A stretch of DNA of 58,425 bases from Methyloceanibacter sp. (GTDB taxonomy: Bacteria > Pseudomonadota > Alphaproteobacteria > Rhizobiales > Methyloligellaceae): positions 1 through 58,425 of the forward strand of contig JASJEH010000009.1 in NCBI GenBank assembly GCA_030064755.1, given 5' to 3'. Within the stretch, counting starts at the first letter, position 1, and every line of letters starts with the position of its first letter. The position numbers and the translations under genes were made by a program. This document shows positions 33,426 to 34,230 of this stretch, piece after piece. A model generated the notes under the pieces. It had not been told where the DNA came from and did not search any database. It worked only from the letters and a program-made list of their open reading frames with translations.

Positions 33426-33563
33426 ATGACTGAAACGGCCCAACCAAATCAGATCTCCGGCGCGACCAAAGTCAAGCTGGTCCTAGCCTGGATCATGGTG
33501 AGCGTCCCGCTTGTTTGGGGCGTGCTCAATACGCTCGAAAAGGCCTCTCAGCTGTTTAGGTAG
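33426..33563 (+). CDS. MFS transporter small subunit
   Basis: A 45-aa protein starting with no gap after the OFA carrier stop. One transmembrane helix (about residues 16-36) contains KLVLAWIMVSVPLVWGVLNT, then a short tail ending SQLFR. Small single-helix proteins of this form accompany OFA-type carriers in many proteobacteria. The start is coupled to the previous stop and has no ribosome-binding site of its own other than within the carrier's end. Confidence 0.78.
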   Translation: MTETAQPNQISGATKVKLVLAWIMVSVPLVWGVLNTLEKASQLFR

Positions 33564-33625: not shown

Positions 33626-33640
33626 AGAATAATTTATTCT
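33626..33640. promoter_or_regulatory. AT-rich palindrome upstream of pqqA copy 1
   Basis: AGAATAA-T-TTATTCT is a perfect 7-bp inverted repeat around one base, in an AT-rich patch 100 bp upstream of the first pqqA. It has the form of a dimeric repressor or activator site. The half-site TTTAGAA resembles the Irr iron-control element, but the spacing differs from that consensus. No matching site was seen before the second copy. Confidence 0.3.
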
Positions 33641-33741
33641 GTAAGAATCTGTTAATGCGCCAGTCATGCGGTTCTCATCCCAGATCCCCATTATCTGTAC
33701 ACGACGATGTTTACCGAACGAACCTTTCTAAGGAGACGACC

Positions 33742-33831
33742 ATGAAAGAGTGGCTGAAGCCTGAGATCACCGAGTCCGAAGCTGGCATGGAAGTTACTTC
33801 CTACCTTCCGGCTGAGCTCGACCGCGCTTAA
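33742..33831 (+). CDS. pqqA: PQQ precursor peptide PqqA, copy 1
   Basis: A 29-aa peptide with the PqqA core GMEVTSYLPAELD. Glu17 and Tyr21 are in the ExxxY spacing that PqqE crosslinks to build pyrroloquinoline quinone, the cofactor of methanol dehydrogenase. A strong AAGGAGA lies 5 bases from the ATG. It is followed by its own terminator. A second gene with an identical product lies 337 bp downstream. The pqqBCDE genes are not in this window. Confidence 0.92.
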   Translation: MKEWLKPEITESEAGMEVTSYLPAELDRA

Positions 33832-33859
33832 TTCGCGCTGATCTAGCCTAGTTTTCGAA

Positions 33860-33896
33860 AATGGCGGTCCTAGCGATTTGCGGGGCCGCCATTTTT
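33860..33896 (+). terminator. Terminator of pqqA copy 1
   Basis: AATGGCGGTCC and GGGGCCGCCATT pair, with a small loop and a TTTT run, 29 bp after the pqqA stop. Confidence 0.75.
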
Positions 33897-34078
33897 GTAT
33901 GCGCTATCGGCTGTCACGTCGCTCATCGCGCCCAAACTGCGAGCAGCCGACCGCCGCAAGCCTTATCGGGGTCCCTTCACGACCATTCCCGCCGTTCAGA
34001 TTGTTTTCATGGACGCGTCATGCGCCGCTCATTCAAATTGTCGCACCTTAGGCCATCGTTTATCGAAAGGAGACGACC

Positions 34079-34168
34079 ATGAAAGAGTGGCTGAAGCCCG
34101 AGATCACCGAGTCCGAAGCTGGCATGGAAGTGACTTCCTACCTCCCGGCTGAGCTCGACCGCGCTTAA
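34079..34168 (+). CDS. pqqA: PQQ precursor peptide PqqA, copy 2
   Basis: The 29-aa product is identical to that of copy 1. The two coding regions differ at three synonymous third positions. The shared block covers AAGGAGACGACC ahead of the ATG, the gene, and about 15 bp after the stop (ATTCGCGC-GATCTAGC). The ExxxY pair is Glu17/Tyr21. The upstream regions are not obviously the same, so the two copies could be controlled differently. It has its own terminator. Confidence 0.92.
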   Translation: MKEWLKPEITESEAGMEVTSYLPAELDRA

Positions 34169-34192
34169 TTCGCGCCGATCTAGCAATCCAAG

Positions 34193-34230
34193 AATGGCGG
34201 CTCTCGCGTTGGCGGAGCCGCCATTTTTTT
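34193..34230 (+). terminator. Terminator of pqqA copy 2
   Basis: AATGGCGGCTC / GAGCCGCCATT with a short loop and seven T follows the second pqqA by 24 bp. Stem arms are nearly the same as at copy 1, so gene and terminator were probably duplicated as one unit. Confidence 0.85.

What the first reader, a model, noticed from the sequence alone, without database searches (positions are those of the whole stretch)
33742..34230. Two orphan pqqA genes in tandem, each with its own terminator
Two 29-codon genes encode the identical PqqA precursor, with Glu17 and Tyr21 in the crosslinking spacing. They differ at three silent positions and share Shine-Dalgarno, gene and terminator. pqqBCDE are not in the surrounding 24 kb in either direction. 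Separate upstream regions suggest gene dosage or different control of PQQ supply next to fdh. Purifying selection on the peptide is implied by silent-only differences, or else the copy is recent.
Basis: partly seen in the sequence, partly recalled or inferred. Interest (0 to 1): 0.8.

Follow-up and report, generated by a model that had tools for sequence, protein, structure and literature searches.

The report
Duplicated PQQ precursor genes, shared operator
A bacterium of a methanol-eating group keeps two copies of the tiny gene whose peptide is turned into the cofactor PQQ, far from the enzymes that process it; such stray copies are already known, but here each copy, and the processing genes of its relatives, sits behind a row of short repeated DNA sites that looks like a shared on-switch.

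Summary
Two 29-codon pqqA genes (33742-33831, 34079-34168, +) encode the same peptide, pass PF08042 and TIGR02107 cut-offs, and each has a Shine-Dalgarno and a hairpin terminator. They are the only pqqA found in this 90.6%-complete, Methyloceanibacter-type genome; pqqCDE and pqqB lie on two other contigs, and no pqqA lies beside pqqCDE. The pair is not recent: 1-3 such copies occur in congeners, and each position keeps its own conserved promoter. Multi-copy orphan pqqA is known in methylotrophs, so the genes alone are ordinary. The added element: all 35 type-1 orphan copies that I held with upstream DNA (Methyloceanibacter, Methyloligella) have four TCAT-type heptamers at 11-nt period; 18 of 35 have CATTAT 10 nt further on. 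A related array lies upstream of pqqCDE in 16 of 16 Methyloceanibacter loci (decayed in this genome). Cluster-linked and Hyphomicrobium-type pqqA lack it. Best reading: a PQQ-supply regulon under an unidentified OmpR/PhoB-family response regulator, with several self-terminated precursor genes giving dosage. The regulator is not identified; a canonical PhoB box is not supported. There are no expression data.

The parts
33639..33678 (+). array upstream of pqqA copy 1: four heptamers CTGTAAG, TGTTAAT, CAGTCAT, TTCTCAT at 11-nt period
   Evidence: 0 of 300 shuffles; 57.3 bits with a matrix built without this genome; third-best window position -8.9
33689..33694 (+). -10-like CATTAT, 10 nt after the array
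   Evidence: CATTAT at this distance in 18 of 35 orphan copies; not tested experimentally
33742..33831 (+). pqqA copy 1
33858..33895 (+). terminator hairpin of copy 1 (13-nt arms with one mismatch or G-U pair, dG -24.0)
33993..34032 (+). array upstream of pqqA copy 2: CGTTCAG, TTTTCAT, GCGTCAT, CGCTCAT at 11-nt period
   Evidence: 0 of 300; 59.2 bits
34044..34049 (+). weak -10 candidate of copy 2 (CACCTT), read by eye
   Evidence: no CATTAT here, and the -10 region does not resemble that of copy 1
34079..34168 (+). pqqA copy 2
34190..34228 (+). terminator hairpin of copy 2 (14-nt arms with one mismatch or G-U pair, dG -28.8)
33426..33563 (+). 45-aa ORF between the MFS gene and copy 1 (neighbour, not claimed as part)
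   Evidence: no Pfam hit

Best explanation
The two genes are functional PqqA precursor genes that have replaced the cluster-linked pqqA as the source of PQQ precursor in this Methyloceanibacter-type species. Each is its own small transcription unit (promoter, ribosome site, 29 codons, terminator), so that a consumed substrate peptide can be made far in excess of PqqCDE. Each promoter holds four tandem 11-nt-spaced heptamers, read as head-to-tail sites of an OmpR/PhoB-family response regulator placed where such an activator would contact polymerase. Related arrays lie upstream of pqqCDE in the genus, so precursor and processing genes form one regulon. Shown: genes, identity, orphan state, no pqqA beside pqqCDE, conserved arrays and terminators. 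Inferred: that the arrays bind protein, that the protein belongs to this family, its signal (probably methanol-related demand for PQQ), that a cluster copy was lost, and dosage as the reason for several copies.
For: Family membership. Only two pqqA in the assembly; pqqC was found in 16 of 17 Methyloceanibacter-group genomes, and 10 of the 16, this one and two single-contig genomes among them, have no pqqA in the 1.5 kb upstream of it. Four full-length PQQ alcohol dehydrogenases here as consumers. Array in 35 of 35 orphan type-1 copies held with upstream DNA, each at 0 of 300 shuffles, and in 26 of 26 of the named set, mostly the same genes. Related array upstream of pqqC in 16 of 16 Methyloceanibacter loci at 0 to 5 of 200 shuffles. 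Matrix from orphan promoters scores 29.7 to 48.6 at five pqqC promoters and 13.0 at a sixth, against -8.2 at best in 21 MDH loci and -13.3 in 16 pst/response-regulator loci. Core identity 86% against 40-47% in the rest of the array between copies 1 and 2. Promoters conserved by position across six species. Precedent: an orphan pqqA in Methylosinus has expression values 11857 and 13927 where pqqE has 166 and 161 (PMC3615186, passages).
Against: No transcripts, binding or PQQ data. I defined the array after seeing it; a motif-free periodicity test is weak for single promoters (23 of 100 shuffles for copy 1, 4 of 100 for copy 2). This genome's own pqqC array is decayed: matrix score -15.6, the lowest of the 16, heptamer test 1 of 200; four of the 16 pqqC loci have negative matrix scores and two more score below 1. 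pqqB of this genome has no array. Methyloligella pqqC arrays are weak (24 and 8 of 200). CATTAT follows the array in only 18 of 35 copies, and not in copy 2 here. One Methyloceanibacter MAG has a further, divergent pqqA without array (L148, 79 of 200). The assembly is incomplete.
Confidence: 0.66

Rival explanations
1. The arrays are ordinary Pho boxes bound by PhoB, so the orphan pqqA genes belong to the phosphate-starvation regulon.
For: 11-nt period, TCAT core and 10 nt to the -10 are the geometry of a Pho box (recalled); a PhoB over the curated cut-off is in 4 of 4 genomes tested; the pst promoter of a congener has CTGTCAT and GCGTCAT 22 nt apart.
Against: The canonical pattern CTGTCAT-N4-CTGTCAT with up to 2 mismatches gives 27 hits in 3 genomes (6 for the reversed control) and none is at pqqA; the pqqA matrix scores -21.1 at best in the pstS loci that its printed table shows; the first heptamer positions and the spacers differ.
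Confidence: 0.15
2. The regulator is the sensor kinase/response regulator pair beside whose kinase gene Methyloligella carries the array.
For: In both Methyloligella genomes a 4-heptamer array (0 of 300 shuffles) lies between the kinase gene and a divergent operon; the one pair tested has HisKA/HATPase and Response_reg/Trans_reg_C domains; the kinase has orthologues (66-68% identity) beside listed regulator genes in this genome (C104) and in G004.
Against: The orthologous promoters in G000 and G004 have no array (156 to 275 of 300 shuffles); the array faces the divergent operon, not the kinase; seven to ten full-length regulators of the family other than PhoB are listed per genome.
Confidence: 0.2
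3. Only dosage matters: the copies are constitutive, and the upstream similarity is left over from duplication of one promoter.
For: Copies 1-3 are paralogous units; multi-copy pqqA is frequent: 61 of 101 pqqA-bearing genomes among 297 of the order have two or more.
Against: TCAT cores are kept at 86% while the rest of the array is at 40-47%; a related array is also upstream of pqqC in the genus.
Confidence: 0.2
4. The orphan peptides serve another purpose, such as metal (lanthanide) handling, rather than PQQ.
For: PMC11317620 (passages) reports orphan pqqA2 and pqqA3 of M. extorquens responding to the form of neodymium and speculates on lanthanide uptake.
Against: No other pqqA was found here to feed pqqCDE; the crosslinked Glu and Tyr are invariant in the eight peptides aligned.
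Confidence: 0.06

Closest known systems
Multi-copy pqqA of Methylophilaceae (PMC4109929, passages) and Methylovorus sp. MP688 (Ge et al. 2015, seen only as a citation)
   Same: several pqqA copies, typically with a single set of the other pqq genes (3 to 12 copies in nine Methylophilaceae genomes; one of them has extra pqqDE)
   Different: different class of bacteria; no operator array is mentioned in the passages that I saw
Orphan pqqA2/pqqA3 of Methylorubrum extorquens AM1 (PMC11317620, passages)
   Same: orphan copies that respond apart from most of the PQQ genes
   Different: a further, previously studied pqqA is mentioned there; promoters were not compared here
pqqA of Methylosinus trichosporium OB3b (PMC3615186, passages)
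   Same: pqqA separated from pqqBCDE and missed by annotation; far higher transcript than the rest
   Different: one copy; its promoter was not compared here
Five pqqA copies in a Hyphomicrobium denitrificans strain (PMC9851590, passages)
   Same: three of the five are located separately; copies differ in expression
   Different: a pqqABCDE operon remains; Hyphomicrobium-type copies in my set lack the array, and 33 of 57 have CGATT[TG]G upstream instead
PhoB Pho box (geometry recalled)
   Same: 11-nt direct repeats with a TCAT-containing core, 10 nt from the -10
   Different: the canonical pattern is absent at pqqA; four or more repeats

Membership tests
PqqA (PF08042 / TIGR02107) | profile score over curated cut-off | tested here: met
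   both copies
PqqA (PF08042 / TIGR02107) | Glu-X3-Tyr for PqqE crosslinking | tested here: met
   E17, Y21
PqqA (PF08042 / TIGR02107) | is processed to PQQ by PqqDE, PqqB and PqqC | not testable with these tools
   pqqB, C, D, E are present in the genome
orphan multi-copy pqqA | two or more pqqA, unlinked to pqqBCDE | tested here: met
PhoB Pho box | CTGTCAT-N4-CTGTCAT with few mismatches | tested here: not met
   no pqqA site at 2 mismatches or fewer in 3 genomes
PhoB Pho box | bound by PhoB | not testable with these tools
   none
OmpR/PhoB-family operator (direct repeats near 11 nt) | tandem same-orientation sites at a fixed period near one helical turn | tested here: met
OmpR/PhoB-family operator (direct repeats near 11 nt) | a member of the family binds it | not testable with these tools
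   candidates only

The most novel reading that the evidence does not exclude
Methyloceanibacter and Methyloligella have a PQQ-supply regulon: an OmpR/PhoB-family response regulator binds four or more tandem heptamers in front of each free-standing pqqA, and in Methyloceanibacter in front of pqqCDE, so that precursor copy number and processing enzymes are tuned together; the orphan copies then made the cluster pqqA dispensable, and it was lost in part of the genus.
Probability: 0.45. Interest if true: 0.6.

Novelty: new variant of a known kind. Interest (0 to 1): 0.45.

Why it matters
Free-standing extra pqqA genes are known in several methylotrophs, but why they exist and what drives them is open. 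A conserved, sequence-defined array shared by the orphan copies and by pqqCDE makes the question directly testable and gives a handle for finding the regulator of PQQ supply. It may also supply a missing gene: the passages that I saw of the M. caenitepidi Gela4 genome paper name pqqBCDE but no pqqA (PMC6417678); G004, which I take to be that strain from its size and its five methanol dehydrogenase genes (an inference), has three tandem copies.

Tried and rejected
Recent duplication: rejected. Canonical Pho box: not met. Arrays at methanol dehydrogenase promoters: none stood out in 21 loci. Array at own pqqB: none. Array as a general feature of multi-copy pqqA: rejected; 75 rows of other pqqA types and taxa in the named set all have negative matrix scores, -14.4 at best (recounted; one gene is there twice with alternative starts). 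Three of those 75 rows reach 0 of 200 in the heptamer test alone (L155, L158 second copy, L162 second copy). In 20 further loci (one, L242, gave no row; 30 rows) two copies reach 0 of 200: L236 second copy, on a contig as long as that of L162, and L240 first copy. I take these as chance or separate arrays; this was not followed. Motif-free periodicity is too weak for single promoters. The kinase/regulator lead from Methyloligella is not conserved in Methyloceanibacter. Literature searches for a Pho box, PhoB or a response regulator together with pqq/pqqA gave 1, 14 and 0 papers, none of which looked relevant by its listing; I did not read them. A look for MxbM as a candidate gave listings and two passages of PMC7391723, nothing on pqqA. 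The library is open-access papers only.

Full report
WHAT IS THERE. The window is contig C64 of a 3.0-Mb assembly in 157 contigs, 90.6% complete. Two pqqA genes lie at 33742-33831 and 34079-34168. They encode one peptide, differ at three silent positions, and pass two curated profiles. Each has AAGGAG upstream and a hairpin with T residues at its end; the arms change in step between the copies.

WHERE THE REST OF THE PATHWAY IS. pqqE scores 551.8 bits on C151 and pqqB 378.9 bits on C106; pqqC and pqqD are with pqqE. No other pqqA was found in the assembly. The interval between pqqC and the divergent OxyR-like LysR gene on C151 (below the OxyR cut-off) has no PqqA-like ORF by my pattern. In g1, pqqC was found in 16 of 17 genomes. 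Six of the 16 have a second kind of pqqA (MREW..) upstream of pqqC within 1.5 kb and ten have none. Two single-contig genomes (G004, G009) are among the ten; in G004 pqqA is near 85 kb and pqqC near 2,420 kb. Four PQQ alcohol dehydrogenases over cut-off, plus a fragment, are in this genome.

AGE OF THE PAIR. In the genus one to three type-1 copies are present per genome, between the FDH/MFS and mesaconyl-CoA hydratase/SDH genes where the stretch held shows both sides. Over six species, the 66-nt promoter block of position 1 is 88.0% identical between species (15 pairs), that of position 2 is 87.4% (15 pairs), while position 1 against position 2 within a genome is 48.7% (6 pairs). The pair is therefore older than these species. 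The 90-nt genes differ at 3-4 positions within a genome and at 0-7 between species at the same position. In four flanking genes 33-48% of same-residue codons differ between this genome and the same five others (three genes in one of them). So silent sites are constrained too, or partly homogenised; I did not separate these.

THE ARRAY. Upstream of all 35 type-1 copies that I had with upstream DNA, four heptamers with a TCAT-type core repeat every 11 nt; none of 300 shuffles of each region reached the score. The orphan copies of one MAG (G012) were not in that set; one of them, L141, has the array and the other, divergent one, L148, has not. Six cluster-linked type-2 copies do not show it (9 to 299 of 300), nor do three copies of more distant family members (61 to 254 of 300). 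The heptamer weights used the recalled Pho-box consensus after I had seen the repeats, so this is not a blind test. Two less circular tests follow. A 40-nt matrix built without this genome scores 59.2 and 57.3 at the two window sites and -8.9 at the next of 116,772 positions. A matrix built from orphan promoters only scores 48.6, 35.1, 32.2, 31.9, 29.7 and 13.0 upstream of pqqC in six congeners, against -8.2 at best in 21 MDH loci and -13.3 in 16 pst and response-regulator loci; in loci that had been fetched with the TCAT pattern itself the best are 19.5, 10.1, 5.0 and 4.3.

Over all 16 Methyloceanibacter pqqC loci the heptamer test gives 0 to 5 of 200 shuffles, and by eye the best stretches are the homologous ones. 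But matrix scores run from 48.6 down to -15.6 (four of the 16 are negative), the lowest being this genome, where the last heptamers have decayed. Two Methyloligella loci give 24 and 8 of 200, and four other family members 138 to 187 of 200. Between copies 1 and 2 within six genomes the TCAT cores are 86% identical, the first three heptamer positions 40% and the spacers 47%. CATTAT begins 10 nt after the array in 18 of 35 copies; two more have CATTCT; copy 2 of this genome and its counterparts have neither.

SPECIFICITY. A three-heptamer pattern with up to two mismatches finds 13 sites in four genomes, ten of them at pqqA, with none for the reversed control. An exact TCAT-N7-TCAT-N7-TCAT pattern finds 22 sites in ten genomes: 14 at pqqA, one upstream of pqqC, seven elsewhere (two of them overlapping), none for the reversed control. 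Two of the seven are orthologous Methyloligella sites between a sensor kinase gene and a divergent operon, with an OmpR-type regulator gene next to the kinase; the orthologous promoters in this genome and in G004 lack the array. This is a lead, not an identification. In the named collection 26 of 26 type-1 copies have the array at 0 of 200 (mostly the same genes as before), and 75 other rows have negative matrix scores.

MECHANISM. PqqA is consumed one molecule per PQQ (established knowledge), so its message is expected to exceed that of the enzymes; in Methylosinus OB3b the orphan pqqA has 11857 and 13927 where pqqE has 166 and 161 (PMC3615186, passages). Separate short units, each with its own promoter and terminator, fit this. 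Direct repeats near one helical turn next to a -10 are how OmpR/PhoB-family activators bind (recalled). A canonical PhoB box pattern does not hit pqqA in three genomes, so I do not file the array as a Pho box.

WHAT IS KNOWN. Several pqqA copies are reported for Methylophilaceae (3 to 12; PMC4109929, passages), a Hyphomicrobium denitrificans strain (five; PMC9851590, passages) and M. extorquens (orphan pqqA2 and pqqA3; PMC11317620, passages). In my survey of 297 genomes of the order (at least 90% complete, drawn evenly), 101 have a pqqA match at E 0.01 or better; 61 of these have two or more, 28 three or more, up to eight. The finding as given is thus a new member of a known kind. The shared array is the added, untested element; the listings showed no report of it, within an open-access library.

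Noticed in passing
L149-L153, L159 (upstream of cluster-linked pqqA) and L163-L209, L232-L246: A different shared element, CGATT[TG]G often followed by TTAT, lies upstream of 33 of 57 Hyphomicrobium-type pqqA genes (1.3 expected from shuffles) and 6 of 6 Methyloceanibacter cluster-linked pqqA, but only 1 of 25 orphan type-1 copies.
   Followed up: partly
L279 3450-3489 and L280 4501-4540: Four-heptamer TCAT array between a sensor kinase gene and a divergent operon in both Methyloligella genomes; the two operon proteins tested (L279) have no Pfam hit and look secreted by eye.
   Followed up: partly
L037 1492-1590 / L134: First tandem copy in M. marginalis is frameshifted after SYLPAD; real or an assembly error is open.
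   Followed up: no
L007 about 1-1245: A long ORF that looks by eye like a TonB-dependent receptor lies beside the orphan pqqB of this genome; not tested with a profile.
   Followed up: no
window 33426-33563: 45-aa ORF, hydrophobic by eye, directly after the MFS gene, no Pfam hit.
   Followed up: no
L148 5001-5087: A third pqqA type (MNEWLKPHIQETEAGM..) in one Methyloceanibacter MAG, without array and without pqqC, pqqB or pqqE in the stretch held.
   Followed up: no
L232, L234, L235, L237-L240: Tandem pqqA copies also occur in other families of the order (for example three about 155 nt apart in L235), with other upstream regions.
   Followed up: partly
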